Below, piece after piece: positions 10,066-32,876 of a stretch of 33,631 nucleotides of DNA. Under the pieces are notes generated by a model. The model was not told where the DNA came from and did not search any database. It saw only the letters and a program-made list of their open reading frames with translations. The first letter of the stretch is position 1; each line of letters opens with the position of its first letter. Source of the stretch: Candidatus Gastranaerophilales bacterium (lineage in GTDB: Bacteria > Cyanobacteriota > Vampirovibrionia > Gastranaerophilales > Gastranaerophilaceae); assembly GCA_944322855.1 (NCBI GenBank), contig CALUQG010000021.1, positions 1 through 33,631 of the forward strand, in the 5' to 3' direction. Both the position numbers and the translations under genes were made by a program.

Positions 10066-10494
10066 ATGTTACAAAAAATTCAATTAAATTCTTTTAATTA
10101 TGCTAACACCTATGCCAATAGAGCTAAAGCTTCAACACCGGTTCAGGCACCGGCACAAAAAGTATCTTTTAAAGCTGGTAATGAGTTGTATGAAGAAACT
10201 GTAAGTCTTATAAATCTTGCAAGAGAAAAAGCATTCAGCGCAGGCGTTGAAGAACTTAAAGGAAGACATGATGACGGCTCCTTTGTTACATTCCGTCCGA
10301 CCAAAAAAGGTATGGAATTTCGTGTAGAAAGTGATGATCCGAAATTTAGAAAAGCTCATGGATACGCTTGTTCTATTGATACAAAAAATTCATGGGTTGT
10401 CTGGGCAAGCGACTATCCTGCATTTATGCTCCGTGAAGTAGAAGACGGAGAGTTTGATGCAATAATAGAAAAATATCTTCCGACAGTTTTATAA
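10066..10494 (+). CDS. Unknown small protein with N-terminal VSFKAG motif
   Basis: Not recognised. A 142-residue soluble protein. Residues 1-32 are low-complexity, rich in Asn, Tyr, Ala and Gln, and lead into K-V-S-F-K-A-G at 32-38. The remaining 100 residues look like a compact alpha/beta domain (helix around 45-65, then strands including F-V-T-F-R-P and M-E-F-R-V). There is no signal peptide or membrane segment. The start is well supported by AGAGAGGT eight bases or so upstream. The motif at the join between a disordered leader and a folded domain is shared with the proteins at 14551 and 30138. It converges on the next gene with a one-base gap. Confidence 0.78.
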   Translation: MLQKIQLNSFNYANTYANRAKASTPVQAPAQKVSFKAGNELYEETVSLINLAREKAFSAGVEELKGRHDDGSFVTFRPTKKGMEFRVESDDPKFRKAHGYACSIDTKNSWVVWASDYPAFMLREVEDGEFDAIIEKYLPTVL

Positions 10495-10495
10495 T

Positions 10496-11281
10496 CTAGA
10501 AGCCAATTCTGGCTCTAAGACCAATTTCTTTATAGCGAGTCGAACCGAAAAATCCCATTGTGAGGTTCGACTTGTCGTTTATAAATTGTTTTTTGTAATT
10601 CACTTCAAATGCAGCATCGTCCTTGTAAATACCAGCATTTATACCAAGAAATGTTCTCTTGTTAATTCTATTGTAATATCCTGCATTAACCCCTGGATTA
10701 TCTTTATTTAGGTCTACATTTCCATATATATTTTTTTGCGGAGTAGAATAATTAACATTAAGGCAGCAAGAGTTATCAAAAGGTCTGTATTCAACTTGTC
10801 CTTTTAATCTTATGTCTCCGTTGCCGTATTGTTTTTCAAGTGATGTACCTATAGATTTATCAAATATATCAATACTGCTTCCGAGTGTAAGATTATTGTT
10901 TAATTTCTTTTTGGCTTCAACTTCATCAAGACTAACATCGTATTTTACATCTTTAAAAAATTCTGATTTTTTCTCTACTTTTGGAAGTTCCGGCCGCATT
11001 ACAGCATTAACGGCACTTGGCTTTTTATCTTTTATATTGCTTTCAATCTGCTGATCAATGAAAGTTGGGGTTGAATGAGTCGGATTTGTCACTCTGGTGT
11101 CAAAACTTTTTCTGCTGGTAATTTTTTCCCAGGCGTCTTTTGCAAAATCTTCAGCACCTTTGGTTATAGTTTTTATTTCTTTACTGTATTCTTTTTCCGC
11201 TGACTCCAAAATAACTTTGTCTGAGTCAGAGTTATTAATGATATCCAGAAATACATCAAATCTCTCGTGGTCGTTTGGCAT
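10496..11281 (-). CDS. Unknown protein with beta-barrel-like C-terminus
   Basis: Not recognised. The 261-residue protein splits in two: a charged, helical N-terminal half (1-115) and a C-terminal half (about 120-261) of alternating polar and hydrophobic strands with tight Gly/Asn/Asp turns, ending in A-R-I-G-F. A terminal Phe after amphipathic strands is typical of outer-membrane beta barrels recognised by BamA. However, no Sec signal is seen: the ATG at 11281 has AAGAGA upstream, and the same frame meets a stop shortly before it. Either it is exported differently, or it is a soluble or membrane-curling beta protein. A possible TATACT -10 lies at 11306-11311 (minus). Confidence 0.75.
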   Translation of the reverse strand: MPNDHERFDVFLDIINNSDSDKVILESAEKEYSKEIKTITKGAEDFAKDAWEKITSRKSFDTRVTNPTHSTPTFIDQQIESNIKDKKPSAVNAVMRPELPKVEKKSEFFKDVKYDVSLDEVEAKKKLNNNLTLGSSIDIFDKSIGTSLEKQYGNGDIRLKGQVEYRPFDNSCCLNVNYSTPQKNIYGNVDLNKDNPGVNAGYYNRINKRTFLGINAGIYKDDAAFEVNYKKQFINDKSNLTMGFFGSTRYKEIGLRARIGF

Positions 11282-11352
11282 AGTTTTTCTCTCTTGTATA
11301 TATAAAGTATATCTTATGAGAAAAATTGACTAAATTTTGAAGATTATTAATT

Positions 11353-12183
11353 TTATTTAAGTATTTTTATTAATGTAATAATATCAAATAATTTGTATTT
11401 GATTTTATTACCTGAAGCCTCAATTGTGATAAAAGGTATAAAACCAAAGAGTTTGATTGAAGACCTGGAACTATTTAGCTTTGAAAAATACGGGTATTTA
11501 GACCATAAATAATTCTTTATTCTGCATTCCTTTTCAAGCATTTTTTCTTTTTGCAAATGAGAAGTATTTCCCTCATGGCTTCTATATATAACAAGGGGTT
11601 CTTCAATATTATAAAACATTGTTTTATCAATTAATCTCGCCCACATCATATAATCTTCACAAGGTGAAAAAGCTTCTTCCCATCTTATATTATTTTGCAC
11701 AAGAACACTTTTTCTAATCATTGCGCCGGTATGAAGCATTACACAGCCTTTTATTACCAGTCCTTTTTTTATCTCAATATTATTTATAGGATTTGTTATT
11801 TTTGATTTTTTGTTTATTTTGTAGGCAAAGCTGCTGACAACACCGGTATCAGAATTGTTGTCAAGAAATCCTGACTCTTTTTCAAGTCTTTGTGGCAAAG
11901 AAATGTCATCATGGTCAAAAATTGCAATATATTCTCCTTTTGACATATCTAACAGTCTGTTTCTGCTGTATGATATACCCATATTTTTTTCATTTTCTAT
12001 ATAAATAACTCTTTTGTCATTATAGCTTTCTATTGTTTCTTTAATGTAGCCGCATTCCGGCGAATCGTTAAGCAAAAGAAACTCAAAGTCTCTGAATGAT
12101 TGTGACAAAATAGATTCAAGCATTTCTTTTAAATGTTCAGGGTTTGTTTTATATAAAGGAGTTAAAACAGAAATTTTGGGCAT
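11353..12183 (-). CDS. Family 2 glycosyltransferase
   Basis: A 276-residue GT-A fold transferase that adds a sugar from a nucleotide-sugar donor to a surface glycan. The N-terminus has the GT2 start (I-S-V-L-T-P-L-Y), followed by N-M-G-I-S-Y-S-R-N, the metal-binding D-H-D-D at 90-93 and the acceptor-side E-D-Y at 176-178 that supplies the usual catalytic acid position. The last 40 residues are basic and hydrophobic and may hold it at the membrane. It is the last gene of a four-gene minus-strand operon, 15 bases behind the acyltransferase, with AGAGGA as ribosome binding site. Donor and acceptor are unknown. Confidence 0.9.
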   Translation of the reverse strand: MPKISVLTPLYKTNPEHLKEMLESILSQSFRDFEFLLLNDSPECGYIKETIESYNDKRVIYIENEKNMGISYSRNRLLDMSKGEYIAIFDHDDISLPQRLEKESGFLDNNSDTGVVSSFAYKINKKSKITNPINNIEIKKGLVIKGCVMLHTGAMIRKSVLVQNNIRWEEAFSPCEDYMMWARLIDKTMFYNIEEPLVIYRSHEGNTSHLQKEKMLEKECRIKNYLWSKYPYFSKLNSSRSSIKLFGFIPFITIEASGNKIKYKLFDIITLIKILK

Positions 12184-12198
12184 TTAATCAATTCCTCT

Positions 12199-12810
12199 TT
12201 ATTTTTTTATTAATTGGTACTCGTTTGGTCTTTGCCTTAGCCAATTTATATCTTTTTTGACAATCTTTGCCGGTATTCCTGCAATAATTGAATTTTTTTC
12301 ATGAAATCTACCTGTAACAATGCTGCCCTGTGCAATGACGGAATTGGGTGGGACACAGGTGTTTTTCATTATTTTCACATCTTTACATACCCAAACATGA
12401 GAACCTATGGTTATGCTTTTCCCTTTATTTAATAAATTCCCTTGTAAATCAGTTATAGAGTGAGTATCGCTACAGGCTATTTCTATATTAAAAGAAAACA
12501 TACAATCATCTCCTATTGTGATTGTACTGCCATCTTCTCCAAGCTGAAAATCTGCGGAGTTGAATGAGGTATTTTCCCCGATTTCAATTGTTGTATTGTT
12601 TATTTTTGAATCAGGAAATCCGACTCTTATATGTACATTGTGAAGATAGGCATTTTTTTTGATTATTATTTTATTGTTATTGCCATGTATTTTGATACGG
12701 ACTTTTCTTAAGTGTACATTATCAGATATTTCAATAGAGTTGTTGTATCCGTTATTTTTTATATTTACTAAATTAATATATTTTTGAATTAATTTTTTTA
12801 TAAACTTCAT
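12199..12810 (-). CDS. Left-handed beta-helix (hexapeptide) acyltransferase
   Basis: A 203-residue protein of the LbetaH acyltransferase family (maltose/galactoside O-acetyltransferase-like), likely acetylating a sugar of a surface glycan with acetyl-CoA. Hexapeptide-type strands with repeated I/V at every sixth position run from about 25 to 185. The probable catalytic histidine lies in S-D-T-H-S-I near residue 117, followed by G-S-H-V-W-V and the G-I-P-A-K-I-V signature near the C-terminus. Its ATG follows the preceding glycosyltransferase stop with no gap, and its ribosome binding site (GGAGA) lies in that gene, so the two are coupled. Confidence 0.9.
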   Translation of the reverse strand: MKFIKKLIQKYINLVNIKNNGYNNSIEISDNVHLRKVRIKIHGNNNKIIIKKNAYLHNVHIRVGFPDSKINNTTIEIGENTSFNSADFQLGEDGSTITIGDDCMFSFNIEIACSDTHSITDLQGNLLNKGKSITIGSHVWVCKDVKIMKNTCVPPNSVIAQGSIVTGRFHEKNSIIAGIPAKIVKKDINWLRQRPNEYQLIKK

Positions 12811-13779
12811 TTATTCTCCATATATATGTTCATAAAAATTTAGAGGTTTATTCATAACTGCACCGTCAATTTTTCCTTTAGTTTTAAATAAGAGCCCTAA
12901 CATATTGAAAAATACAGCTAAACCCAATAATATAGACGGAATTAGCCCGAGTATTATACAGGTCATAATCATAAAAGTTTTTAGAAGATAAGTTAAACTC
13001 TTCTTTTTATTGTTTTTAAATTTGCAATATGAACTGCTGTAGCCGTTATAGTAGCATTTATTAAGTATGTAATTTATATTTGCTCTGGCTTTTGGAATAA
13101 CTTCATATATTACGGCATCGTTGTTCCATGCAATCGTAAAACCTTTATCAGATGCTTTTTTGAAAAAATCTCCGTCTTCGCCTCCCATATAAACATATTC
13201 ATCTGAAAAACGAAGACCAAAGTCTCTTACTAAGCTGACAGGAAAAAACACATTTCCTGATGCGCAGGTATTTCTGATTAAACCTGTTTTTTTAGTTGTT
13301 TTTTGTTTAAAAACGAAATGTTTTTTTATATATGAAGGATAGCTGTTGTCAAACTTGCAAGGTGTCGGACCTGAGCTTATAATTACATTTTCATTGTTGC
13401 TGTAGAATTCAACATGATTTATTAAAGTTTTCTCTGTTAAAAGTTCATCATCATCGAACATTAAAATATGGCTTGCACCAAGTTTAATTGCTTCGGTCAG
13501 TTGTTTATTGCGAGCATTTGAAATCCCTCTGTTTGGCTCTATTACATAATGCAATTTAAGCTTCAAACTGTTTTGCAATTCTTTTATCACAGGCTCTGCT
13601 GATTTGTTTTTATCATTGTCTACAACGAGCACCTCAGCCCTTATCCCATCCGGAATTTCGAGACTATTTACTGATAACAGACATTCTTTTAGCATCAGAG
13701 GCCTTTTGCAGGTGCAAAGCGTAATCAGAACAAATGTTACAGGTGTTTTTTTTATTTGATTGTAATTTTCTGTTTCCAT
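12811..13779 (-). CDS. Family 2 glycosyltransferase with C-terminal membrane anchor
   Basis: A 322-residue GT2 enzyme. Visible are T-L-C-T-C-K-R-P-L near the N-terminus, V-V-D-N-D (52-56), N-R-G-I-S-N-A-R-N, the metal-binding D-D-D-E at 109-112 and G-G-E-D-G-D-F-F (about 204-211), which matches the acceptor/catalytic ED motif. Two hydrophobic helices at about 263-300 anchor it in the inner membrane with the catalytic domain in the cytoplasm, usual for lipid-linked glycan acceptors. It precedes the acyltransferase and second GT2 and lies 24 bases behind a small HTH gene. The ribosome binding site is AAAGGTAG. Specificity is unknown. Confidence 0.9.
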   Translation of the reverse strand: METENYNQIKKTPVTFVLITLCTCKRPLMLKECLLSVNSLEIPDGIRAEVLVVDNDKNKSAEPVIKELQNSLKLKLHYVIEPNRGISNARNKQLTEAIKLGASHILMFDDDELLTEKTLINHVEFYSNNENVIISSGPTPCKFDNSYPSYIKKHFVFKQKTTKKTGLIRNTCASGNVFFPVSLVRDFGLRFSDEYVYMGGEDGDFFKKASDKGFTIAWNNDAVIYEVIPKARANINYILNKCYYNGYSSSYCKFKNNKKKSLTYLLKTFMIMTCIILGLIPSILLGLAVFFNMLGLLFKTKGKIDGAVMNKPLNFYEHIYGE

Positions 13780-13803
13780 ACTCTACCTTTGTAAATTGCA
13801 GAT

Positions 13804-13998
13804 TTATTTGAACAAATATTCCAAACTCGAAATTTTTAATGATAGAAAATTTTTTATTATAAGTGCTTCATTCAAGCGGAAAGATTTTTTTCCGGTGATT
13901 TTCATTTCCAATTCTTTTTCAGTGATATTAAGTTTTTCAGCAAGCTCTGAATTGGAAATATTAAATTTCTTCATTTCTTTAGACAGATTTTCGTGCAC
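13804..13998 (-). CDS. Small helix-turn-helix DNA-binding protein (XRE-like)
   Basis: A short HTH protein. After a first helix, S-E-L-A-E-K-L-N-I-T-E-K-E-L forms the helix-turn-helix typical of XRE/Cro-like repressors, followed by a K-I-T-G-K-K-S-F turn and two closing helices. I prefer the GTG at 13998 because AGGA lies six bases before it, giving 64 residues; an in-frame TTG at 14055 would give 83 residues but has no ribosome binding site. It is the first gene of the glycan operon (24 bases before the GT2 gene) and faces the divergent XRE regulator at 14169, suggesting it controls that operon or itself. Confidence 0.72.
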   Translation of the reverse strand: MHENLSKEMKKFNISNSELAEKLNITEKELEMKITGKKSFRLNEALIIKNFLSLKISSLEYLFK

Positions 13999-14111
13999 TT
14001 TATTTCCTAATTTAGATAACTCGATAATTATATATCTATATAAAGAAATAAACAAGACATAAATATCAAAATAGGGATATTTTTAAACAATAAACTTTAA
14101 CATAATGATTA

Positions 14112-14126
14112 TTTTCTAGTAGAAAA
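14112..14126. promoter_or_regulatory. Operator-like palindrome between two HTH genes
   Basis: TTTTCT-AGT-AGAAAA is a perfect 6-bp inverted repeat with a 3-base centre, 43 bases before the XRE start codon and 114 bases before the small HTH gene. It would overlap the -35 region of a promoter using GATAAT at 14140-14145. Symmetric AT-rich sites of this size are typical XRE dimer operators. Binding is inferred. Confidence 0.5.
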
Positions 14127-14168
14127 CAATACGTTGTTGGATAATAATTTTTGTAACGTGGAGATTTA

Positions 14169-14537
14169 ATGCAAAAACTAAGTAAAGACAGACTAAATGA
14201 GCTAAAACGCAGTAGAAATCTTACTGCAAAATCCATTGCACAAAAAACAGGTATTCCCAAAAGCACTGTTGAAAAAATCTTTGGAGGTTTTAACAAAAAT
14301 CCTACTATAGAAAATCTTCAAAAAATTGCTAATGTGCTTGATTGCAGTATAGATGACTTCCTTGAATACGAAACAGACGAACTCTCACCGTTTTTTATGG
14401 ATAAAGTCGTCGTAAAATATGCTCAGTATCTTTATGAAAAACCTCAGGTCAGAAAACTTATCGATGAAGTTAAAAGATTGGATGATGCTGATATAGAGCT
14501 TTTGATATCTATAGCAGCAAGGCTTAATGAAAAATAA
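14169..14537 (+). CDS. XRE-family transcriptional regulator
   Basis: A 122-residue regulator. Residues 5-65 form a classical XRE HTH domain: L-N-E-L-K-R-S-R-N-L-T, S-I-A-Q-K-T-G-I-P-K-S-T-V-E-K-I (recognition helix) and T-I-E-N-L-Q-K-I-A-N-V-L-D-C-S-I-D-D-F-L. The acidic C-terminal half (70-122) is helical and likely a dimerisation region. The start follows GGAG by six bases. It is divergent from the small HTH gene and the glycan operon and shares their control region with a palindrome at 14112-14126. A role in controlling that operon and itself is inferred from position. Its end lies 13 bases from the convergent radical SAM gene. Confidence 0.9.
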   Translation: MQKLSKDRLNELKRSRNLTAKSIAQKTGIPKSTVEKIFGGFNKNPTIENLQKIANVLDCSIDDFLEYETDELSPFFMDKVVVKYAQYLYEKPQVRKLIDEVKRLDDADIELLISIAARLNEK

Positions 14538-14550
14538 ATAAGTTCTTTTT

Positions 14551-15972
14551 TCATTTAAGCATTTCTTTTGTAATTATTTCACTTCTTAATGATGGTGAAA
14601 TAGGTGCTGTTATTTTTCCTTTGTTTTTATAATTAAGTTCAATGTCAGTAGGATAAGTTTCGTACCAGTTTGTGAGATAAAATTTTCCGTTAATATCAAT
14701 TAGTCCTTCTTTGAAACTATGAGCTGCTTTGAGAGGGTTGTTAAATTCATTTTCTTTTGCTAATTTTGTAATTTTTGATTTTTTATTTTCTTGAACCAGT
14801 TTTTTTAATCTTCCGCTATAACCAAGATTTGTATTGATTTCTTCAATTCCTTTTTTTATGTATTTTAAATTGTTTTCAATATCATCTTTTTTCTTAATGA
14901 TTTTAGGATTTGAACTATTAAAATCATTAATGTACAAAACTTCAAGTTTTTCTAAAATATCTTTATAGATTTCTATTAAATCTTTTTCTCTGTATCCATC
15001 TGCATTTTTAGTGTTGTTATCCAGAGCTCTTGCTATAAATTCAAGTTTGTTATCTTTTATTAACGGCGACATCGTAAATAATACATTAGCCATTCTTGTT
15101 GTGTATATTTCTTTAAAAAAATTTTCTTTTTCAAAATTATGAGCTTTTTGATATTTTACAGCTTTATTATATAAAGCGTGAAAGGGATTTATAGATATGC
15201 AAAAACGAAGAAAATCGTAATCTTTGGAATTTATTGCTTTACTTACAAGTTTTTCAATTCTATCTTGTGTTTCTTTATCTTGAATATTCCATCCGGCTGT
15301 ATCAAATAATATTTCTTTTCCTGAAATATCGTATAGCATTTTTGCAAGATCAAGATAATCATATGTTTTTCCATTTTTATCTTTCAGATATATAAATGCT
15401 GAATCAGAATCATGGAATAATGTATTATATTTGTTATTTGAACTACTTAATATATTAAACCCGAGTCTTTTATTTAATTCTTTAAATCCATTGCAAAGGT
15501 TATTGAAATCATCAAAATCAATTTTGTTAATTTTGTTATCTTCCCATTTGTATGACGGAGGCATAGCTTCGGCATAGCAGTGACAGCACATATTATGACA
15601 TCCTCTTTGTAGTGCTATCTCTGTCATATTATTTGCAAGAAGCTTTATTTGCTTCATTGAGAGGTTTTCAAATATCTCTATATCTTTTTGAATTCCTTCA
15701 AGTTTATTAAGATCATACAGGTTTATGTTTTTATAAGAAACAGAATTTTGTGCAAATTTTTTCTTTTGTTTTTTCAAATAAATTTCAATCTTATCTCTGT
15801 CATTGCTGCCAAAAGATATTTGATACATGTATTGGGGTAACAAGTTAAGATTATTTTCATTATAATTGTTTAACTGAGGTATATCATTTTTATAATAGTT
15901 TTTGAAAGGTATTTTTTTAGACTCTATTCCAGGATTATTATAAAATATATGATTTTGTACGCTTTTAATCAT
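14551..15972 (-). CDS. Divergent radical SAM protein with N-terminal ISFGS motif
   Basis: A 473-residue protein with a C-x3-C-x2-C cluster-binding motif (C125, C129, C132) in R-G-C-H-N-M-C-C-H-C-Y, the hallmark of radical SAM enzymes binding a 4Fe-4S cluster and S-adenosylmethionine. Residues 1-50 are Asn/Tyr-rich and lead to I-S-F-G-S at 52-56, a version of the motif seen in neighbouring unknown proteins. After the barrel region come charged helices (about 330-420) and a C-terminal G-K-F-Y-L-T-N-W-Y segment that may lie close to the substrate, but it lacks the Cys clusters of SPASM domains. Substrate unknown. No ribosome binding site precedes its ATG. It stands alone, convergent with the XRE gene. 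Confidence 0.8.
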   Translation of the reverse strand: MIKSVQNHIFYNNPGIESKKIPFKNYYKNDIPQLNNYNENNLNLLPQYMYQISFGSNDRDKIEIYLKKQKKKFAQNSVSYKNINLYDLNKLEGIQKDIEIFENLSMKQIKLLANNMTEIALQRGCHNMCCHCYAEAMPPSYKWEDNKINKIDFDDFNNLCNGFKELNKRLGFNILSSSNNKYNTLFHDSDSAFIYLKDKNGKTYDYLDLAKMLYDISGKEILFDTAGWNIQDKETQDRIEKLVSKAINSKDYDFLRFCISINPFHALYNKAVKYQKAHNFEKENFFKEIYTTRMANVLFTMSPLIKDNKLEFIARALDNNTKNADGYREKDLIEIYKDILEKLEVLYINDFNSSNPKIIKKKDDIENNLKYIKKGIEEINTNLGYSGRLKKLVQENKKSKITKLAKENEFNNPLKAAHSFKEGLIDINGKFYLTNWYETYPTDIELNYKNKGKITAPISPSLRSEIITKEMLK

Positions 15973-16075
15973 ATTTACAGAAAAATAGAAAATAATTTTT
16001 TTTGCTAATTTAACAAATCGATTTATTTTAGGAAAAATTTTACTAAAAAAAATATTTGCGCTAAAGTTTTCATGA

Positions 16076-16084
16076 TGATAATAT
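16076..16084 (+). promoter_or_regulatory. Possible extended -10 promoter of topA
   Basis: TGA-TAATAT fits an extended -10 element 52 bases before the topA ATG. No strong -35. TATACA at 16104-16109 is an alternative -10. Inference only. Confidence 0.35.
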
Positions 16085-16136
16085 ATCGAAACGGTTCATT
16101 AATATACAGGAATATGGATTAGGTTTAAATATACTT

Positions 16137-19305: not shown

Positions 19306-19314
19306 TAACGTTAA

Positions 19315-23271: not shown

Positions 23272-23292
23272 TTTATGTCCTTTATGATTATC

Positions 23293-24630: not shown

Positions 24631-24662
24631 CGTAATACCTCTATGTCATAATTTACTAATAA

Positions 24663-24671: not shown

Positions 24672-24746
24672 AATAATATGTTGTTTTGCACATATATTAG
24701 GTGGATATTAATATTTTATTTAATAGGTACAATCTTTGTAATAACT

Positions 24747-24774
24747 AAAAGCCGGATAAATCTATCCGGCTTTT
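24747..24774 (-). terminator. Rho-independent terminator of the TM2 gene
   Basis: A perfect 12-bp stem, AAAAGCCGGATA (24747-24758) with TATCCGGCTTTT (24763-24774), around a four-base loop. It is GC-rich in the middle and flanked by A/T runs, so it can act on both strands. It lies 30 bases beyond the TM2 stop. Confidence 0.92.
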
Positions 24775-24804
24775 GGGTTTATTTGTAATATAAAATAATC
24801 ACAA

Positions 24805-25059: not shown

Positions 25060-25101
25060 ATAAAACTCCTTACTTGATGATTAAGATATTTAAACCAGAT
25101 A

Positions 25102-25110
25102 ATTATATCA
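25102..25110 (-). promoter_or_regulatory. Extended -10 promoter of the TM2 gene
   Basis: TGA-TATAAT on the minus strand, a perfect -10 with TGn extension, 43 bases before the start codon. The -35 region is weak. The predicted start of transcription is near 25095. Confidence 0.55.
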
Positions 25111-25144
25111 ATACTTAATACAATTAAACTCGTTCATATAGAGT

Positions 25145-25159
25145 ATCTGTGTTACAGAT
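25145..25159. promoter_or_regulatory. Palindrome upstream of the secreted pair
   Basis: ATCTGT-GTT-ACAGAT is a perfect 6-3-6 inverted repeat 57 bases before the Cys-rich gene. It has the form of a repressor or activator half-site pair, and nothing close to it is coding. Function inferred. Confidence 0.35.
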
Positions 25160-25215
25160 GTGTAATGCAAATTCATTTTAAAACAATACAATTATTTGTA
25201 TCGCAGGTTGTCTTT

Positions 25216-25401
25216 ATGAAAAAGATAATTGCAGTTTTAATAATAATATTGATGTCGTGTAGCGCAGGATTTGCTTTTATGAATGATATAAAAGCAAGAA
25301 GAGGATGTTGTTCACATCATGGCGGTGTGTGCGGATGTTCTAACAGTGGACGGGCTGTTTGCTGCGATGGCTCACTCAGCCCGTCATGTGGATGCAATTA
25401 A
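25216..25401 (+). CDS. Small secreted Cys-rich protein (GCCSxHGGVCGC type)
   Basis: A 61-residue precursor. Residues 1-20 are a Sec signal peptide ending S-A-G-F-A, and the mature part of about 40 residues has eight cysteines in the pattern G-C-C-S-H-H-G-G-V-C-G-C...C-C-D-G-S-L-S-P-S-C-G-C. I recall similar short exported Cys/His motifs in several bacteria but know no function; disulfides or metal binding are likely in the periplasm. I chose ATG 25216 because it gives a clean signal peptide; an in-frame ATG at 25165 adds 17 residues. Its stop overlaps the next start (TAATG), so both exported proteins are made together. Confidence 0.78.
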   Translation: MKKIIAVLIIILMSCSAGFAFMNDIKARRGCCSHHGGVCGCSNSGRAVCCDGSLSPSCGCN

Positions 25402-25808
25402 TGAAAACAATTGCTATTATAATGTGCTTGTTGTTCAGCTTATTTAATCCTGTATATGCATCGCATAAATACCTGGAAAAGGATTATCAAAAATATTGGT
25501 GCAACCAGAATAACGGAAAAACCGAAGTTAAACTTCCTGACTATACGAGAATTGACTGTCTGACAAAAAATTATGCAATCGAATTTGATTTTGCAAACAA
25601 GTGGGCTGAAGCAATAGGGCAATCACTCTATTATTCTCTTTCAACCAACAAAAAACCCGGTATAGTTTTAATACTTGAAGACAGTAACAAAGATTTAAAA
25701 TATTTAAACAGATTGATAAATGTTGCAAATAAATATTGTATACGTGTGTGGACTATTACCCCGTTAGACATTGAAAACAGTAGATTTTGTACAAATTGTT
25801 CCAATTAA
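25401..25808 (+). CDS. Secreted protein, possible PD-(D/E)xK nuclease-like fold
   Basis: A 135-residue precursor with a clear signal peptide (1-20, cleavage after N-P-V-Y-A). The mature part contains R-I-D-C-L (D52), A-I-E-F-D-F-A-N-K-W (E61, D63, K67), then Q-S-L-Y-Y (Q74, Y78) and a hydrophobic strand G-I-V-L-I-L-E. The order D, E-x-acid, QxxxY resembles PD-(D/E)xK nucleases, but the lysine of E-x-K is Asp here, so catalysis is uncertain. C34, C53, C113, C130 and C133 could form disulfides. I chose ATG 25401 for the signal peptide and the TAATG overlap with the Cys-rich gene. Fold assignment is inference. Confidence 0.75.
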   Translation: MKTIAIIMCLLFSLFNPVYASHKYLEKDYQKYWCNQNNGKTEVKLPDYTRIDCLTKNYAIEFDFANKWAEAIGQSLYYSLSTNKKPGIVLILEDSNKDLKYLNRLINVANKYCIRVWTITPLDIENSRFCTNCSN

Positions 25809-25822
25809 ATAATTCACAAATG

Positions 25823-25852
25823 TTACGAAATCTTAACAATTATTATTATAAT
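25823..25852 (+). promoter_or_regulatory. Possible promoter of the Met/Gln-rich protein gene
   Basis: TTACGA (25823-25828) and a perfect TATAAT (25847-25852) are 18 bases apart. Transcription would start near 25859, giving a leader of about 70 bases, with AGAGG before the ATG. Confidence 0.45.
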
Positions 25853-25928
25853 AAGGCAATTTTGCAATCTAAAATGTTTTTATTTTAATACGAGGAATTA
25901 ATTACTAAACACGAGAGGAAAACCAACA

Positions 25929-26453
25929 ATGGGTTACGCAATTTTCACAGCAAGAAAATTGATGTTGACAAACCGCATTAATCAAATTAACTTTAGGATG
26001 ATGCAGTTGTCACAACAACAACAGACCCTGGCAGATCAGGCCAGTCGTTGGGAACGTGCTATTGCAAATACACGGTCTCTCTTCAATAATATTGGTAATA
26101 TGTTCCAGATGGGAATTAATATGGCACTGCAAGGGCAAATGCAGCAGCTATATTCAAGCAATGTTTCAGGAGGAGGAAATTTTGATCCGTCGTCGATGAA
26201 TGCGATTGGAAGTATGCTAAACGGAGGAAACAACTTCTTTGCAACACCTCTTGGATCTTATATGATGATGATGCAGTCTTCAATAGAAATGTCAAACCAA
26301 AATCAATTAAGACAGGTAAAAGATATGGAAAACCAGATAGAACTCCAAATGAAGTCTCTGGAAACACAACTAAAAGCAGCACAGGCGGAAATGGAAAATG
26401 TCGAAAAAGCCGAAGACAACGAAATCAAGAAATCGGCACCGCAGTTCGCTTAG
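25929..26453 (+). CDS. Unknown Met/Gln-rich coiled-coil protein
   Basis: Not recognised. The 174-residue protein has no signal peptide and no true membrane helix. An N-terminal helix (about 5-55) is rich in Gln, Met, Asn and Arg, the middle (about 55-115) is rich in Met, Asn, Gly and Ser with G-G-G and M-M-M-M runs, and the C-terminus (120-165) is a Gln/Glu/Met-rich coiled coil. The layout of helix, flexible Gly/Asn centre and coiled coil suggests a self-assembling or needle/filament-like protein, but there is no homologue I can name. It has AGAGG as ribosome binding site, its own promoter and a strong terminator, as expected of an abundant single-gene product. Confidence 0.8.
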   Translation: MGYAIFTARKLMLTNRINQINFRMMQLSQQQQTLADQASRWERAIANTRSLFNNIGNMFQMGINMALQGQMQQLYSSNVSGGGNFDPSSMNAIGSMLNGGNNFFATPLGSYMMMMQSSIEMSNQNQLRQVKDMENQIELQMKSLETQLKAAQAEMENVEKAEDNEIKKSAPQFA

Positions 26454-26485
26454 AGTCAAACAAAGTTACGAATACGCAATCAATA

Positions 26486-26519
26486 AAAAAGCTGTATCGA
26501 ATAAACGATACAGCTTTTT
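26486..26519. terminator. Bidirectional Rho-independent terminator
   Basis: A perfect 14-bp stem, AAAAAGCTGTATCG (26486-26499) with CGATACAGCTTTTT (26506-26519), closes a six-base loop. It lies between the convergent coiled-coil gene and rarA and has A/T runs on both sides, so it can serve both. Confidence 0.94.
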
Positions 26520-26520
26520 G

Positions 26521-27753
26521 TTAGTTTTTAAAATATTTTTTGCCAACAAGTTCATCAGGCAAAAACTGTTGGTTATAATCAGGGTTGTCATGTGTATAGA
26601 CATAACCTATTCCAAAACCGTACTTTTCTGCATCTTTGTAGTGAGCATCTCTAAGGTGCATAGGTGGAGGGTAGTCAAGTCCTGATTTTATATCAGACAA
26701 TGCTTCATCTATGGCACAAATAGCAGCATTGGATTTTGGTGCATCTGCAACATAAGCAACAGCAAGCGCTAAAGGTATTCTGCCTTCAGGCAATCCGAGC
26801 AATTCAACAGCTTTATGCGCATTTACTGCAATGTTAAATGCATTCGGGTCTGCTAATCCGACATCTTCTGCGGCGCATACCATAAGGCGTCTGGCTATAA
26901 ATCTTGGGTCTTCACCTGCAGCTATCATTTTCCCAAGCCAGTATATTGCCGCATTTTTGTCACTGCCTCTGAGACTTTTTTGAAATGCAGAAGCAATGTC
27001 ATAGTGCTCCTGTCTTGAATATTTTATACTTTTTTCCTGGGCTAGGCTTTCTAAAATTTCTAATGACAAATATCTCTTATTATCTTTGAAATCAGCGGCA
27101 AAATAAGAATTTTCAACTAGATTTAGAGCCAGTCTTGCATCTCCTGCCGCATACTTTATAATGAAATCAAGTACTTCCTGTTTTAGTACGATACTCCCAT
27201 GTCTGTCAGAAAGGAATTTAAAGCCTTTTTGTACGATTTCGGAAATGTTATCATCATCAATAGGTTTAAGCATCAATACCTGTACTCGTGAAAGCAGTGC
27301 AGGTACTACTTGAAAAGATGGATTTTCTGTTGTTGAACCAATCAGATAAAACGTACCGTTTTCAAGATAAGGAAGCAGTGCATCCTGCTGAGTTTTACTG
27401 TATCTGTGTATTTCATCAATAAAGAGAATTGTTTTTTTGTTGTATCGTAAATTTTCTCTTGCACGTTCAACACAGTCTTTTATATCTTTTATACCGGAGC
27501 TTACCGCACTGAGTTCTATAAAATCGCTGCTGGTTCTTGTTGCAATTAATCTGGCCAGAGTTGTTTTTCCGCAGCCGGGTGGTCCCCAGAAAATACAGGA
27601 AAATAGTCTTCCCGATTGAAGAAGATTTAAAAATGCAGAATTTTTCCCTACGACCTGATTTTGCCCCATATACTCTTCAAGAGTTTTGGGCCTCAATATT
27701 TCTGCAAGAGGCACCTGCTTATTTTGATTTTCAAGTGAGTCAAAAAGGTTCAT
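26521..27753 (-). CDS. rarA: Replication-associated recombination AAA+ ATPase
   Basis: A 410-residue clamp-loader-like AAA+ ATPase (RarA/MgsA) that acts at stalled replication forks. Visible are an N-terminal P-L-A-E-I-L-R-P (family start), Walker A G-P-P-G-C-G-K-T (about 57-64), Walker B I-D-E-I-H-R (about 112-117), sensor-1 I-G-S-T-T-E-N-P-S-F, and the C-terminal tetramerisation region with A-A-E-D-V-G-L-A-D-P. I take ATG 27753 (GGAG five bases upstream); the GTG at 27759 lies in that ribosome binding site. TTGACA-17-TATCAT gives it a strong promoter. The terminator at 26486-26519 ends it. Confidence 0.95.
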   Translation of the reverse strand: MNLFDSLENQNKQVPLAEILRPKTLEEYMGQNQVVGKNSAFLNLLQSGRLFSCIFWGPPGCGKTTLARLIATRTSSDFIELSAVSSGIKDIKDCVERARENLRYNKKTILFIDEIHRYSKTQQDALLPYLENGTFYLIGSTTENPSFQVVPALLSRVQVLMLKPIDDDNISEIVQKGFKFLSDRHGSIVLKQEVLDFIIKYAAGDARLALNLVENSYFAADFKDNKRYLSLEILESLAQEKSIKYSRQEHYDIASAFQKSLRGSDKNAAIYWLGKMIAAGEDPRFIARRLMVCAAEDVGLADPNAFNIAVNAHKAVELLGLPEGRIPLALAVAYVADAPKSNAAICAIDEALSDIKSGLDYPPPMHLRDAHYKDAEKYGFGIGYVYTHDNPDYNQQFLPDELVGKKYFKN

Positions 27754-27776
27754 AGCCACTCCATTGTATAATAAAT

Positions 27777-27805
27777 ATGATAAAACCAGGGAAAACTAAT
27801 GTCAA
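27777..27805 (-). promoter_or_regulatory. rarA sigma-70 promoter
   Basis: On the minus strand a perfect TTGACA (27800-27805) and TATCAT (27777-27782) are exactly 17 bases apart, giving a start of transcription near 27770 and a 16-base leader holding GGAG. It is the best-scoring -35 box in this window by eye. Confidence 0.72.
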
Positions 27806-27807
27806 AA

Positions 27808-27835
27808 ATGACATGCTAAAAAATTCAGTTATAAT
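27808..27835 (+). promoter_or_regulatory. Back-to-back promoter of the 27843 gene
   Basis: ATGACA (27808-27813) and a perfect TATAAT (27830-27835) are 16 bases apart. The predicted start of transcription falls at about 27842-27843, on the start codon of the gene. The -35 box forms a TGTCA-AAAA-TGACA palindrome (27800-27813) with the -35 of rarA. Confidence 0.55.
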
Positions 27836-27842
27836 AAAGAAT

Positions 27843-28451
27843 ATGAAGAATTTATTTTCTAAAATCACTTTGCTGATATTTGCTTCACTACTTTGTACAG
27901 GCGGAGGTTACAAAGGCTCTTTGCCTGACATAAATATGCAGTTTGAATATAAAAGAACAACACCTCAAGTTACTAAAGGTATATACAATACTTTTGATGA
28001 AACTGAAAAGCAGCCGCAATATAAGAAAGTTCCAAGAGAAAACAAAACATATATTGATATAATCCTGAAAAAAGACAGAACTTCGCCTTATACAAAAGAT
28101 TTGAATGATGTCATTGTCATTTTGGAAAAGATGAAAAAGTGTATAGATACAAATGGTAATATACAAAAATTTAATGCAATAGCCAGTTCAATAATTGATC
28201 ACGCAGACTTCATGGCAGAAAAATATGCTAACAGCCCTGAACGCTACTATATTTCTTTTGCAAAATTGCAAAATATTGCTGCACGGGCAAGAGATATAGC
28301 CACACTCAGGTGTGAATCACAGGTTTATATAAAATATCTTACCTATCAGGGTGAAGGACAAATTTACAGTAAAGATAGCATAAATATGCAAATTAAGCTG
28401 TTTGAAGAAGAATTGGATAACACGATTAGTATTATGAAAGACTCAATATAG
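27843..28451 (+). CDS. Unknown exported protein, 202 residues
   Basis: Not recognised. A signal peptide (K-N-L-F-S-K then a hydrophobic stretch to L-L-C-T-G-G-G) starts the protein. Its L-L-C could be a poor lipobox, but it lacks the usual small residue at -1. The mature part is basic and Lys/Asp/Glu-rich: about 25-70 extended, then helices (about 85-200) with D-H-A-D-F-M-A-E-K, F-A-K-L-Q-N and F-E-E-E-L. I chose ATG 27843 because the hydrophobic stretch then begins at the N-terminus; an earlier in-frame ATG at 27777 lies within the rarA -10 region. No ribosome binding site precedes either, so a leaderless mRNA is plausible. It is followed after 83 bases by another exported protein. Confidence 0.75.
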   Translation: MKNLFSKITLLIFASLLCTGGGYKGSLPDINMQFEYKRTTPQVTKGIYNTFDETEKQPQYKKVPRENKTYIDIILKKDRTSPYTKDLNDVIVILEKMKKCIDTNGNIQKFNAIASSIIDHADFMAEKYANSPERYYISFAKLQNIAARARDIATLRCESQVYIKYLTYQGEGQIYSKDSINMQIKLFEEELDNTISIMKDSI

Positions 28452-28534
28452 TCCTATAACATATTCTGATGGTCAATGTTATCTTTGTTTATTTGCCATA
28501 CACATATTATGTACAGCAAAACAGACGGGGATAT

Positions 28535-29359
28535 ATGTATAAAAAATTATTATTAGTTTGCCTAATCCTAAGTGCAGCTTGCCCTGCGCATGCTTATAAA
28601 GTAAAGACATTTAAGCCTCTTGTTCCTCAAATTCAGAACATGAACACGCTGCAGGATCCATATCAAAATACAATTGCATCAAACGAAAGCTATCCTAAAA
28701 TTACGCAATTGGAAGAAAGTATATTCAAAAAAAATTATGAAAAACAAAATATTTATACTAGACTAAACCGCCTCGAAAAAAAAGTTTTTAACAGGACTTT
28801 TTCAGGTTTGCCGCTTTCCAGTCGAGTTGATAATCTACTGTCTAACATTGACACAGGCATGTTGTATGGAATTACTTCAAAAGATCTTGCAAAGCTTGAG
28901 ACAAAGGTGCTTGGACGTACATACATGAATGATGATACAGAATCTCGAATTACGAGGATGGAAAAAGAAATGCTTGGCGCTATGCAAGGAGGCAATTTAA
29001 AAGATAGATTTGATACAATAAAAACTGCATCAAAACATTACAATTCATATCCTGAACTTATTCAAAGCCAGCAGATTTATCCGCAAAGTACATTCGGTTA
29101 CAATCCATACGGATACTCAACATCGTATGGGCCTGCATATGGAACGTATAGCAGTTATAGAAAGCCAGGTATTTTAAATAGGCTATTTGGCGGCTATTCA
29201 CCGGGCATGCTAACAGGATTTACACCACCTATATATGACCCTTACTCAATGTATACAAGACCCGGCATGGGGCATAGCAGATACGTAAGAGGGATGCGTG
29301 GATGGCATCTCAGAAACAGAAGCACGGGCAGCGGTACACGTGTAAGAATTTTAGACTAA
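28535..29359 (+). CDS. Exported repeat protein with Tyr/Gly/Pro-rich tail
   Basis: Not assigned a function. Signal peptide 1-20 (Y-K-K-L-L-L then cleavage after C-P-A-H-A). Residues about 55-160 hold at least four imperfect repeats of about 21 residues with consensus hydrophobic-x-x-L-E-x-x-hydrophobic-F/L-x-x-x-Y/F...R: I-T-Q-L-E, L-N-R-L-E, L-A-K-L-E and I-T-R-M-E. I recall similar R-L-x-R-L-E repeats in Cyanobacteria/Melainabacteria exported proteins. The tail (about 175-274) is low-complexity Tyr, Gly, Pro, Ser and Arg, likely disordered and surface-exposed. ATG 28535 with GGGG five bases before it is preferred over the ATG at 28469. Confidence 0.78.
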   Translation: MYKKLLLVCLILSAACPAHAYKVKTFKPLVPQIQNMNTLQDPYQNTIASNESYPKITQLEESIFKKNYEKQNIYTRLNRLEKKVFNRTFSGLPLSSRVDNLLSNIDTGMLYGITSKDLAKLETKVLGRTYMNDDTESRITRMEKEMLGAMQGGNLKDRFDTIKTASKHYNSYPELIQSQQIYPQSTFGYNPYGYSTSYGPAYGTYSSYRKPGILNRLFGGYSPGMLTGFTPPIYDPYSMYTRPGMGHSRYVRGMRGWHLRNRSTGSGTRVRILD

Positions 29360-29388
29360 ATTTATATTTATGCAAATATAATAAATTC

Positions 29389-29397
29389 TGCTATAAT
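29389..29397 (+). promoter_or_regulatory. Extended -10 promoter of yajQ
   Basis: TGC-TATAAT, a perfect -10 with TGn extension, 36 bases before the yajQ ATG. Its -35 region (TATGCA, 17 bases upstream) is weak. Confidence 0.55.
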
Positions 29398-29432
29398 TAT
29401 ATTTTGATGTATCTTTATTCAGGAGTATAAAT

Positions 29433-29933
29433 ATGGCAAAAGATTGTAGTTTTGATGTAGTTTCGGAATTCGATAAACAAGAATTGGTTAATGCAGTTGA
29501 TCAGGCAAAAAGAGAAATTAATTCCCGATTTGATTTAAAAAACTCTAATTCCGACATAAATCTGGAAGCTGACAAATGTATTACCATAACAACAAATGAT
29601 GACATGAAACTCAGAAATATTCTTGATATTTTACAAACAAAACTTGTTAAAAGAAATATTAATATTAAAGTTTTAGATGCCCAGCCGATTGAAAATGCTC
29701 TTGGCGGAAATGTCAGACAGGTTTTTAATTTGAAAAAAGGTCTTTCAACAGAATTAGCAAAAAAAATTGTTGCTGACATAAAAAACTCGAAATTAAAAGT
29801 TCAAGCGTCAATACAAGGCGAGCAGGTCAGAGTTTCAGGAAAAAGTAAGGATGATCTTCAGGAGGTAATTAAACTCTTAAAATCCAAAGAAGACGATTAT
29901 GATATACCTCTTCAATTCCAAAATTACAGATAA
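29433..29933 (+). CDS. yajQ: YajQ-family nucleotide-binding protein
   Basis: A 166-residue cytoplasmic protein of the YajQ (DUF520) family, with two ferredoxin-like halves. The N-terminal S-F-D-V-V-S-E-F-D and E-I-N-S-R-F-D-L-K, the central I-E-N-A-L-G-G-N-V-R-Q and the C-terminal Q-V-R-V-S-G-K-S-K-D-D-L-Q are family signatures, and length is normal. In Xanthomonas and Pseudomonas relatives bind c-di-GMP and affect transcription; whether this one does is unknown. The ribosome binding site is GGAG, eight bases before ATG. It is a single-gene unit, and with the PilZ gene makes two potential c-di-GMP receptors in this window. Confidence 0.95.
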   Translation: MAKDCSFDVVSEFDKQELVNAVDQAKREINSRFDLKNSNSDINLEADKCITITTNDDMKLRNILDILQTKLVKRNINIKVLDAQPIENALGGNVRQVFNLKKGLSTELAKKIVADIKNSKLKVQASIQGEQVRVSGKSKDDLQEVIKLLKSKEDDYDIPLQFQNYR

Positions 29934-30137
29934 TACTTTATATGCTTATGCTACATAAAACTTTGTAAAAATATGTTTCAATTAATATTTTCTGATAGCA
30001 AAAATGAAAATTTTTAGACCTTATTCCTCAAGAAAATAGATTGTTTTTGATGCAAAATTTAATTTTTGTAAATAAACATTAAAAATAATCTTGTCAAAAA
30101 CCTAATCTTATGAGAAGGTACATAAGGGCATAAAAAA

Positions 30138-32876
30138 ATGAAAGTAAGTCAGAACCAGAATATTTTATACAAAGACCGAATAAGTCACAAGCAAAAGTCA
30201 GTTGTGACAAATGAAAAGTTTTCACAGGATAATTATTTTAGAGAAACGCCTTTAAAGAGAGATGTAAATGATATTTCCTTTAAAGGCGTTTTCTCTTTGT
30301 ATAATGTAAAAAGATATAACCTGAAACAAAATCTTGATTTTTTATCAAAGTATATTGGTAAAGCACCGGTTGAACTTGAACAAAATTTTCAAAAGTCTCA
30401 CTGGAATGATATAAGAGATCATATTAAAGATTTGCCGAATGGTAAGGTTGAAGTCCGCACCAAAAACTGGACAAGACTTCTTATGGAAGGTGTTGTTTAC
30501 CCTGTTACGGAGCTTCCTATATATATAGCCAATTCATTGAAAAAGACTTTTACAGGTACAGGATTTAATACTCAAAAAGCTACTCTTGAGGAAATGAATA
30601 AAAGGAGCTTTTTGCAGAAAAAATTTGATATATTAAATAACAGTGATATCGTCAACTCCTTCAGTGGTTATATGGAAACAGCTGAAAAATTAAAATACGA
30701 TACACCGGATGTTCAATCATCAGGCTTATTCACCAGAGCAATGAAAATGTTTGATCCGAAATCAGGAAATTACAATGGTGTTCATGAAAGAGCTTTAACA
30801 AGAATAGTGACTGGTTTTATTCCGGCATTTTTCCTCGCAAATGATGCTTATAACCTTTCTAGACTCTGCGATGATGATCCAAAAGCTGCAGAAAAAGAAA
30901 AGAAAGCACGTTTTAATCAAGAAACAAAACGTGTACTTTCTAATGCATATTTGCAATTAATTACACTCGGTGCGCTTTCTAAATATATCAACTCTAAAAA
31001 ATGGGTATTTATGTTAGTTACTGCATTGACAGTTATTGCAACCGAGTCATTCTCAAGATTGTCAAACGGTAAAAAAATAAAATTCATTAATAAAGAAGAA
31101 GCAATAAAGTTAAATAAAGAACTTGCAGAAAGAGAAGATAAAAAAGAAGGCAAAGCTGTAAATGAAACAGTTGAAAGACCGGTCAAAGAAGAAAAAATTC
31201 AACCGAGTTTCAAAGGCTCAAAAGTCTTTCAGGCATTCGGACTTGCTTCTGATATGCCCATTACAGCAATGGATATGTCAGGAAAAACTGTAGTTTTTGA
31301 TAAAAGAAGAGAAATAAAAGAGTCAAAACCTTTGTTGACTTTATCAAGTATTACAAAATGGTTTGTGGGTGTCGTAATAGCAGGATTTGCTCTAAAATCA
31401 GCTAAGAAAAATGTTAAAATCAATGGTGCACAATTAGGCAAGTATTTCAATGTTGTATCTAAAAAATACGACAGGTTATATGAGAAGTTAACAACAGAAA
31501 ATTACAAACTATCAAGAGACAAATTTAATCAAATTATCAATAAGCTTAAATCATACGATGAGGTTCTAGGCAAAAAATTTGAAGATGTAACACTTCAATA
31601 TCAAAAGACATCAAAATTGAATAAAGAAGCAGCAAATATTGCAGAAACACTAGAGCAAGAAGGCTTGACAGAATTTGCTGAAATGTTTAGACACCTTTCA
31701 AATAAAGGAAAAACAAGCTCTTTTGCAGATATAAATGTTCAATCAGCGGCTGACAGTTTCTTTAAAAACAGAAATAACAAAATTATTGAAGCTAATGTCA
31801 ATAAATTTCTCGCTGTATTGAAAAGCAATTCTATGGCAAAAGAGGCTGAAGACATTGAAAACATTCTTTATGAAAATAACAAATTCAATGTAAATAACTT
31901 TACTAAAGCCAAGAAATTCCTTGAAAACCATAATGAACTTAAACCGTTTATAACAACTTTTGAAAACAGGTTTAAAGTTAATAATGATGCGGAAAATCTT
32001 AAAATGTTTAACAGCGCAATGACCGCATTAAAAGAAAAAAATGAAGCAAAAGCTAATGAATTAACAAGTTTAATAGAAAATGCTGTTAACGCTGAGGAAT
32101 ATACATTCGGAAGACGAAATATCAAAGGTGTACGTCAGATAGCTGACTTTGTTACACAGCCATTCAAGTTTATGTGGGGTACTATTACACTTCCATATAA
32201 ACACATAGCAAAACCAATGTATAATGCCATAAAACAGGAATATAAACTCCCTGAGTGGGATAAGGAGCTTGATGCAGTATACAATGGTATCAATAAATTG
32301 ACATACAAATCTAAATTTAAGCCGAATTCTAAGGCAAAAATAGATTTGACAGATGAACAGTTTGCTTCATATATGAATAAACGTATAAATAAAGCATTCA
32401 ACACATCTACTATGTCGAGCATATCAAATTCTGACTTGTCGGCGCTTGCAAAAAACACATCAACAGCTGCGACAGCGTGGTTCTTGATGGCTGATAACCA
32501 TAATATGGTTATGCAAAAATCTAACGGTCAGGATAAAGAGGGCGCTATCTTAAAAGCAAAAGAAAGAGCAATACAGGAAACTTCAAGAACATTCTATAAC
32601 GTGTTGTTCATTAACCTGTTCAATGATACATTCAGAAATACATACAATTCAAGCCTTCTTGGTGCTCAGGCCGTAAACTTTGCATCTACATTGATTGGTG
32701 AATATACAAACAGAAAATTGATAGGAATGCCGGTTAAGGCTTTATCAAGAGATGAAATATTGAATAAAGAATACGAAAATATTACAAGCAAAGGTGCAAA
32801 AGGCGGTTTCTTTAGATTTATGTCGAGACTTACCGGCAAAAAAGTTCTTTCACAAAGAGAAAATTCGAAAAAATAA
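30138..32876 (+). CDS. Large membrane protein with N-terminal ISFKG motif
   Basis: Not recognised; 912 residues. Residues 1-45 are polar and lead to D-I-S-F-K-G at 45-50; the motif occurs again as P-S-F-K-G at 356-360. Hydrophobic stretches lie at about 222-240, 265-310 and 415-430, and the loop after the first is charged (D-D-D-P-K-A-A-E-K-E-K-K). Residues 435-700 are Lys/Glu/Asn-rich helices, probably coiled coils, and the final part (800-880) has further amphipathic or hydrophobic helices before a basic tail. No signal peptide. The pair at 5902 and 7362 shares the hydrophobic-charged loop-hydrophobic layout. The ribosome binding site is AAGGG. It ends at a good terminator. Confidence 0.85.
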   Translation: MKVSQNQNILYKDRISHKQKSVVTNEKFSQDNYFRETPLKRDVNDISFKGVFSLYNVKRYNLKQNLDFLSKYIGKAPVELEQNFQKSHWNDIRDHIKDLPNGKVEVRTKNWTRLLMEGVVYPVTELPIYIANSLKKTFTGTGFNTQKATLEEMNKRSFLQKKFDILNNSDIVNSFSGYMETAEKLKYDTPDVQSSGLFTRAMKMFDPKSGNYNGVHERALTRIVTGFIPAFFLANDAYNLSRLCDDDPKAAEKEKKARFNQETKRVLSNAYLQLITLGALSKYINSKKWVFMLVTALTVIATESFSRLSNGKKIKFINKEEAIKLNKELAEREDKKEGKAVNETVERPVKEEKIQPSFKGSKVFQAFGLASDMPITAMDMSGKTVVFDKRREIKESKPLLTLSSITKWFVGVVIAGFALKSAKKNVKINGAQLGKYFNVVSKKYDRLYEKLTTENYKLSRDKFNQIINKLKSYDEVLGKKFEDVTLQYQKTSKLNKEAANIAETLEQEGLTEFAEMFRHLSNKGKTSSFADINVQSAADSFFKNRNNKIIEANVNKFLAVLKSNSMAKEAEDIENILYENNKFNVNNFTKAKKFLENHNELKPFITTFENRFKVNNDAENLKMFNSAMTALKEKNEAKANELTSLIENAVNAEEYTFGRRNIKGVRQIADFVTQPFKFMWGTITLPYKHIAKPMYNAIKQEYKLPEWDKELDAVYNGINKLTYKSKFKPNSKAKIDLTDEQFASYMNKRINKAFNTSTMSSISNSDLSALAKNTSTAATAWFLMADNHNMVMQKSNGQDKEGAILKAKERAIQETSRTFYNVLFINLFNDTFRNTYNSSLLGAQAVNFASTLIGEYTNRKLIGMPVKALSRDEILNKEYENITSKGAKGGFFRFMSRLTGKKVLSQRENSKK

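What the first reader, a model, noticed from the sequence alone, without database searches (positions are those of the whole stretch)
10066..31217. Shared S-F-K/G-G motif at the N-terminal side of unrelated unknown proteins
V-S-F-K-A-G (10066 gene, residues 33-38), I-S-F-G-S (radical SAM, 52-56) and I-S-F-K-G (30138 gene, 46-50, again P-S-F-K-G at 356-360) each follow an Asn/Gln/Tyr-rich leader and precede the folded part. The 8075 gene has a weaker N-P-S-F-S-K. The proteins are not otherwise alike, so the motif may be a sorting, docking or processing tag specific to this lineage. I recall similar motifs in Gastranaerophilales proteins but have not verified it.
Basis: partly seen in the sequence, partly recalled or inferred. 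Interest (0 to 1): 0.72.

Follow-up and report, generated by a model that had tools for sequence, protein, structure and literature searches.

The report
Shared N-terminal tag in gut bacteria
Otherwise unrelated proteins of a gut-dwelling order of cyanobacterial relatives start with the same kind of short, floppy leader ending in a small "SFKG"-like motif, which looks like an address label whose reader is not yet known.

Summary
The motif is real and more than chance. The window is from Candidatus Gastranaerophilales. It is not found in residues 6-70 of 488 proteins from other orders of the class. The tag is bipartite: M-x-[IV], an Asn/Gln-rich, acid-poor leader of variable length, then [PIVL]-[SNT]-F-[KG]-[GA]. 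None of 45 carriers starts with a Sec-like helix; at least 29 of 37 have no Pfam match. In the window's 912-residue protein, 35 of 35 usable orthologs keep the tag. A lineage-specific N-terminal tag is well supported; its reader is not shown. Best guess: export through a type III apparatus whose gate gene is in 117 of 117 sampled genomes of the order, 74 without flagellin. Against: other orders have the gate but not, in small samples, the tag; the flagellar docking motif is missing. A cytoplasmic docking tag is a close rival.

The parts
10066..10494 (+). 142-aa orphan protein with tag
   Evidence: no Pfam; relative in G101 keeps leader style and VSFK at 38% identity; residues 1-41 below pLDDT 50 in a poor single-sequence model, first helix from residue 40
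10162..10176 (+). tag VSFKA, residues 33-37 of the 10066 gene
14551..15972 (-). 473-aa protein with CX3CX2C (possible radical SAM, unconfirmed) and tag
   Evidence: no Pfam; only PDB sequence hit E 0.69
15805..15819 (-). tag ISFGS, residues 52-56
30138..32876 (+). 912-aa tagged protein; family seen only in this order
   Evidence: match in 104 of 117 genomes of the order, in 0 of 58 sampled genomes of the class outside the order; no Pfam
30273..30287 (+). tag ISFKG, residues 46-50; kept in 35 of 35 usable orthologs
   Evidence: residues 1-54 below pLDDT 50, first strand at 55
31203..31217 (+). internal PSFKG, residues 356-360
   Evidence: in a low-confidence stretch of the model (206-431); meaning not tested
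8075..8605 (+). 176-aa orphan with weaker tag NPSFSK
   Evidence: in the leader+motif set
8147..8161 (+). weak tag PSFSK, residues 25-29
5902..7362 (+). 486-aa protein whose G101 relative (L118:3045-4523) carries PSFKA at residue 25; here only TNFAK at residue 10

Best explanation
A bipartite, Sec-independent N-terminal targeting tag used in Candidatus Gastranaerophilales. Part one is M-[KIN..]-[IV] at the extreme N-terminus; then a probably disordered, Asn/Gln/Ser-rich, acid-poor linker; then [PIVL]-[SNT]-F-[KG]-[GA] just before the folded part. That such a tag exists is supported by statistics and by conservation (I hold this at about 0.93). Inferred: the tag is an export signal for the order's flagellin-independent type III secretion apparatus (FlhA/FlhB-type gate, FliF/FliE base, rod), so the tagged, mostly orphan proteins would be its effector-like cargo. 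The unfolded leader would enter the gate first and the F-[KG]-[GA] element would be held by a gate or adaptor protein. The confidence given is for this full mechanism.
For: Tag. Bipartite: ^M[KINRMQL][IV] in 18 of 36 tagged vs 89 of 1133 untagged proteins without a Sec-like start (pattern chosen after looking). Proteins picked by leader alone carry the loose motif [PIVLT][SNTA]F[KGSRTNQE] in 18 of 45 vs 79 of 590 (G000 without window) and 15 of 43 vs 88 of 658 (relatives); six control motifs are not enriched in either. Leader N 15% vs 7%, D+E 5.7% vs 12.6%. No Sec-like N-terminus: 0 of 45 vs 191 of 1321, without leader filter. Orphan make-up: 37 leader+motif proteins hit only 8 Pfam families at 1e-4 (the FliH and HTH hits look like chance tags), vs 126 families for 60 random proteins; relative in another genus 7 of 36 vs 562 of 1330, p 0.006. 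Available machine: FHIPEP 117 of 117, FlhB 115 of 117, Flg_bb_rod 115 of 117, flagellin 43 of 117 genomes; FliE, FliF, FliH and FHIPEP lie together in flagellin-less G018; VirB4 of type IV systems 0 of 117.
Against: The flagellar docking motif F-x-x-x-hydrophobic is not met: 12 of 36 vs 43% background. In 10 of 36 the F lies before residue 24, too close for the 19-residue minimum reported for FlgD (PMC8983047, passages). The 4 flagellins in the leader set lack the motif. No run test shows tagged genes clustered at type III loci. Some carriers look like ordinary enzymes: FtsH-like, amylase-like, GH77, and a FolE2, by inference the G101 protein whose 88%-identical G000 relative has no tag. Weak membrane segments in carriers (p 0.003) did not hold up under a fairer control (p 0.16). 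Lack of outgroup relatives is only a trend (3 of 36 vs 277 of 1330, p 0.09).
Confidence: 0.35

Rival explanations
1. A docking motif for a cytoplasmic or membrane-bound scaffold or compartment: an order-specific receptor binds the F-[KG]-[GA] element and gathers tagged proteins at one place, without export.
For: Tag seen only in the order while the export gate is found more widely in the class; an amylase-like carrier (L025:16597) and a GH77 hit in the leader+motif set, FtsH-like and FolE2 carriers suggest cytosolic work; two tags in 10 of 35 orthologs of the 912-aa family fit a multivalent binding motif.
Against: At least 29 of 37 carriers have no Pfam match and few have relatives in other genera, unlike a housekeeping compartment; no receptor found or searched for.
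Confidence: 0.33
2. A processing or turnover signal: a protease cuts at or near the motif, or the disordered leader sets protein lifetime.
For: Motif lies right before the modelled fold (first structured element at 40 and 55 in two low-quality models; the second model also has a four-residue helix at 25-28); Gly/Ala after F-K/G is a plausible cut site (inference).
Against: No single residue prevails after the motif in 36 proteins; no peptidase identified; tandem copies are odd for a single cut.
Confidence: 0.12
3. A homologous 5' cassette spread by duplication onto many genes, without a function of its own.
For: Gain or loss between relatives (L038:8359 vs L099:5524; G101 FolE2-like vs its G000 relative).
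Against: Leaders are not alike by eye, and in 35 orthologs of the 912-aa protein F and G are 100% and S 94% conserved amid a diverged leader.
Confidence: 0.08
4. Chance or composition artefact.
For: Low numbers per genome; two of five replication genomes contribute no N-terminal hit; unsupervised search did not find the motif; part of the refined patterns was chosen after looking.
Against: Pre-set reader regex replicates in other genomes and beats shuffles, reversed and substituted motifs.
Confidence: 0.04

Closest known systems
Export signals of early flagellar (rod/hook) subunits: hydrophobic N-terminal signal plus gate recognition motif (PMC8983047, passages read)
   Same: Two elements on the N-terminus, small non-polar residues near residue 3, a Phe-centred element further in, no Sec peptide.
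   Different: F-[KG]-[GA] is not F-x-x-x-hydrophobic; spacing often too short; carriers are not rod/hook proteins.
N-terminal leaders of type III secreted effectors (recalled as a class)
   Same: Disordered, Asn/Ser/Gln-rich, Sec-free leaders on diverse, lineage-specific proteins.
   Different: A short consensus motif shared by unrelated cargo is unusual; export not shown.
Flagellum basal bodies of Buchnera (PMC8109811, listing and start of abstract only; that they lack flagellin is recalled)
   Same: Flagellar-type export and basal-body genes kept in a symbiont.
   Different: Here kept across an order; no cargo tag is mentioned in what I saw of that paper.
Lineage-specific sorting tags such as PEP-CTERM (recalled)
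   Same: Short motif on many unrelated proteins of one lineage.
   Different: N-terminal, no transmembrane stretch or basic tail; no NCBIfam model of that type among the families shown.

Membership tests
Sec signal peptide | Hydrophobic helix in the first ~45 residues | tested here: not met
   0 of 45 regex-positive proteins vs 191 of 1321 others, no leader filter
[quoted passage not shown]
   ^M[KINRMQL][IV] 18 of 36 vs 89 of 1133 (pattern chosen after looking)
Early flagellar subunit export signal | Gate recognition motif F-x-x-x-hydrophobic | tested here: not met
   12 of 36 vs 2246 of 5203 background F; the general form of the motif is recalled, the passages show one example
Early flagellar subunit export signal | At least 19 residues between the two signals | tested here: not met
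   F before residue 24 in 10 of 36; rule from PMC8983047
Type III secretion substrate | Secretion depends on the export gate | not testable with these tools
   needs an experiment
Type III secretion substrate | Export apparatus encoded in the genome | tested here: met
   FHIPEP 117/117, FlhB 115/117 genomes of the order
Type III secretion substrate | Tag follows the apparatus across lineages | tested here: not met
Curated sorting-signal models (NCBIfam) | Match to a sorting-domain model | tested here: inconclusive
   30 tagged proteins scanned; none seen, but only the first 25 of 36 families are shown
Radical SAM superfamily (14551 gene) | Match to a radical SAM model plus CX3CX2C | tested here: inconclusive
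   CX3CX2C present, no Pfam match

The most novel reading that the evidence does not exclude
Gastranaerophilales, including the majority without flagellin, keep a flagellin-free type III apparatus as a dedicated protein exporter, and the M-x-[IV]...[SN]-F-[KG]-[GA] leader marks a secretome of some dozens of lineage-specific proteins per genome that act on host or neighbouring cells in the gut.
Probability: 0.3. Interest if true: 0.9.

Novelty: new variant of a known kind. Interest (0 to 1): 0.62.

Why it matters
These gut bacteria are common, mostly uncultured (recalled) and functionally opaque. A tag that can be read from sequence would pick out a whole class of proteins with a shared destination, and the order-wide export genes would change how their 'incomplete flagella' are seen: passages of PMC4040986 and PMC3787301 treat the partial gene sets as not encoding a functional flagellum or as ongoing genome reduction. 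Both points can be tested directly, for instance in a heterologous type III reporter assay.

Tried and rejected
Unsupervised EM on all N-termini drifted to hydrophobic and Rossmann-like patterns. Plain k-mer ranking did not put the motif on top. A DNA pattern for the motif is hardly better than its reversed control genome-wide, 33 vs 26 matches. 'Carriers have weak membrane segments' (p 0.003) was dropped after a fairer control (p 0.16). Docking through the flagellar gate recognition motif was rejected. Type IV secretion as reader: no VirB4-family match in 117 genomes. Clustering at type III loci: tagged genes at L020:9242 and 10030 and L154:2696 lie within about 7 kb of type III genes, which I judge within what their frequency would give (estimate, no test run). 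Structure: 10066 alone gave mean pLDDT 43; the 912-aa protein 52.5 with 15 sequences, and no PDB fold match below E 1.7. Relatives of the 10066 protein: none found in named genomes; in the order 3 of 117 genomes match, G000 itself included. Rows dropped before counts: from 42 regex hits I removed 6 as evident housekeeping matches (three thymidylate kinases, a DnaN-like, an activase-like protein and FlgC; labels by eye) to get the 36-protein set. Proteins under 100 aa and, where stated, the window were left out. The DSP-type phosphatase L044:5992 with VSFKG is not in the 36. In the outgroup set one control motif (I in place of F) was enriched behind leaders (7 of 16 vs 78 of 472, p 0.011).
Full report
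What was checked. The quoted motifs are all in the window at the stated places. The window is contig 21 of a 2.01-Mb genome, G000. Its 912-residue protein has 18 close relatives in named genome records, 16 titled Candidatus Gastranaerophilales and 2 uncultured bacterium.

Is it more than chance? The same regex in stretches of five other genomes of the order (one of another family; four of the own family, one of these of the own genus) gives 5 versus 2 in another 621 proteins (OR 10.8, p 0.0035). Three of the five genomes supply these 5 hits (G013 2, G018 1, G101 2); G078 and G035 supply none. A broader form [IVPTL][STN]F[KGREN][GA], already used, gives 14 versus 11 in the relatives (OR 5.5, p 4e-5). 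The reversed motif gives 2 versus 15, and L, I, V, M or W in place of F show no enrichment; Y shows some in the relatives (7 versus 8, p 0.013) but not in G000. Shuffling the first 80 residues of 1336 proteins never reached the observed counts in 500 rounds. The variant DTVSF occurs 6 times in residues 9-100 and never later in 1366 proteins. On the other side, [ST]F[KG][GAS] alone is not enriched, and unsupervised searches did not single the motif out.

Shape of the tag. In 36 tagged proteins (42 regex hits less 6 housekeeping matches removed by eye) the leader has 15% Asn against 7%, and 5.7% acidic residues against 12.6% in residues 2-35 of untagged proteins; 18 begin with M-[KINRMQL]-[IV] against 89 of 1133. 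A leader rule that does not use the motif, set after looking at these genomes, picks 45 of 635 G000 proteins, of which 18 carry a loose form of the motif, against 79 of 590 others; in the relatives 15 of 43 against 88 of 658; in outgroups 1 of 16 against 58 of 472. Without any leader filter, 0 of 45 regex-positive proteins start with a Sec-like helix, against 191 of 1321. The motif starts between residues 8 and 89. Fifteen of the 36 come from 635 sampled G000 proteins outside the window, about 2.4%.

Conservation. The 912-residue protein has a match in 104 of 117 genomes of the order and in 0 of 58 sampled genomes of the class outside the order. Of its orthologs in hand, 35 distinct ones have a usable N-terminus and all 35 carry the tag, as LSFKG, ISFKG, SSFKG, VSFKG, LSFGV, LAFKG or ISFRG; two needed residues upstream of the first ATG to show it, and 7 were cut at a locus edge and left out. 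In the leader the commonest residue of most columns is found in 20-60% of sequences (exceptions include S16, N31 and the P-L at 38-39); at the tag it is S 94%, F 100%, K 89%, G 100%. Ten of 35 have two tags. Many of the 35 are of the own genus or close to it. Elsewhere the tag comes and goes between relatives.

Which proteins carry it. Pfam matches at 1e-4 are scarce: 8 families for 37 leader+motif proteins, so at least 29 have none, against 58 families for 55 leader-only proteins and 126 for 60 random ones. Recognisable carriers include an FtsH-like AAA/M41 protein, an amylase-like protein, a DSP-type phosphatase, a GH77 hit, weak GNAT and HNH hits, a FliK, and a FolE2. A relative in another genus of the sample is found for 7 of 36 tagged against 562 of 1330 others (p 0.006); in the outgroup sample 3 of 36 against 277 of 1330 (p 0.09). 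This is the profile of fast-evolving, lineage-specific proteins.

Where it is found. The tag therefore looks confined to the order, though samples are small.

A possible reader. Of 117 sampled genomes of the order, 117 have an FHIPEP (FlhA/SctV) match, 115 a FlhB-type match, 115 a rod-domain match, but only 43 have flagellin. Counted from the tables, 40 genomes have an FHIPEP match better than 1e-250 and all 40 have flagellin; the 74 without flagellin show only the other type (one of them, G045, only a partial match). In flagellin-less G018, FliE, FliF, FliH and FHIPEP sit in one cluster. Literature passages speak of partial or incomplete flagella gene sets (PMC4040986; PMC3787301; PMC5877343). 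My searches of the held library for type III secretion or secretion systems with Melainabacteria, Gastranaerophilales or Vampirovibrionia, and for Gastranaerophilales with flagellar, listed no paper whose title or shown abstract describes such a system; preprints and most subscription papers are not held. VirB4 of type IV systems was not found. So an order-wide, not motility-bound export apparatus and a class of Sec-free, leader-bearing orphans coexist. That link is inference.

What speaks against the link. The gate is wider than the tag: 41 of 58 sampled genomes of the class outside the order have a match. The tag lacks the flagellar gate recognition motif and is often too near the N-terminus (with PMC8983047, passages). 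The four flagellins in the leader set lack it. FliK of G013 (LSFKA) and FliD of G000 (starts MSISFSG) have tag-like stretches, but these are two cases picked by eye. I therefore give full export through this apparatus 0.35 and a docking tag 0.33.

Verdict.

Noticed in passing
order-wide; G018 L152:11159-17137: Flagellin-free type III export genes kept across sampled Gastranaerophilales: FHIPEP 117/117, flagellin 43/117. Literature passages treat the set as an incomplete flagellum.
   Followed up: partly
G000:C24:22334-23365 and equivalents: A separate 484-513-residue frame matching only the C-terminal half of FHIPEP (about 304-655) in 19 of 19 order genomes of that sample; looks like a stand-alone FlhA-C paralog. 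Letters not fetched.
   Followed up: no
window 25929-26453; L047:17494-18579; L047:18826-19803; L034:2330-3001; L152:2561-3820: Family with conserved N- and C-terminal ends and variable middle, one member beside a type III cluster; may be axial subunits replacing flagellin. The window protein is a weak relative.
   Followed up: partly
window 5902-7362 and 7362-8036; L118:3045-4523 and 2332-3045: Adjacent pair of orphan membrane-like proteins conserved as a pair in G101; L020:5713 and 6247 look like a similar pair by eye.
   Followed up: no
window 10496-11281: 261-residue protein with a weak Eukaryotic porin hit below the cut-off (E 0.004); possibly a beta-rich surface protein.
   Followed up: no
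L152:13294-14316, L154:10492-12025, L156:7768-8769, L157:12852-13898: Unknown WSFHKS-containing family, in G018 and G013 between FliF-like and FliH-like genes; no Pfam match for the G018 copy.
   Followed up: no
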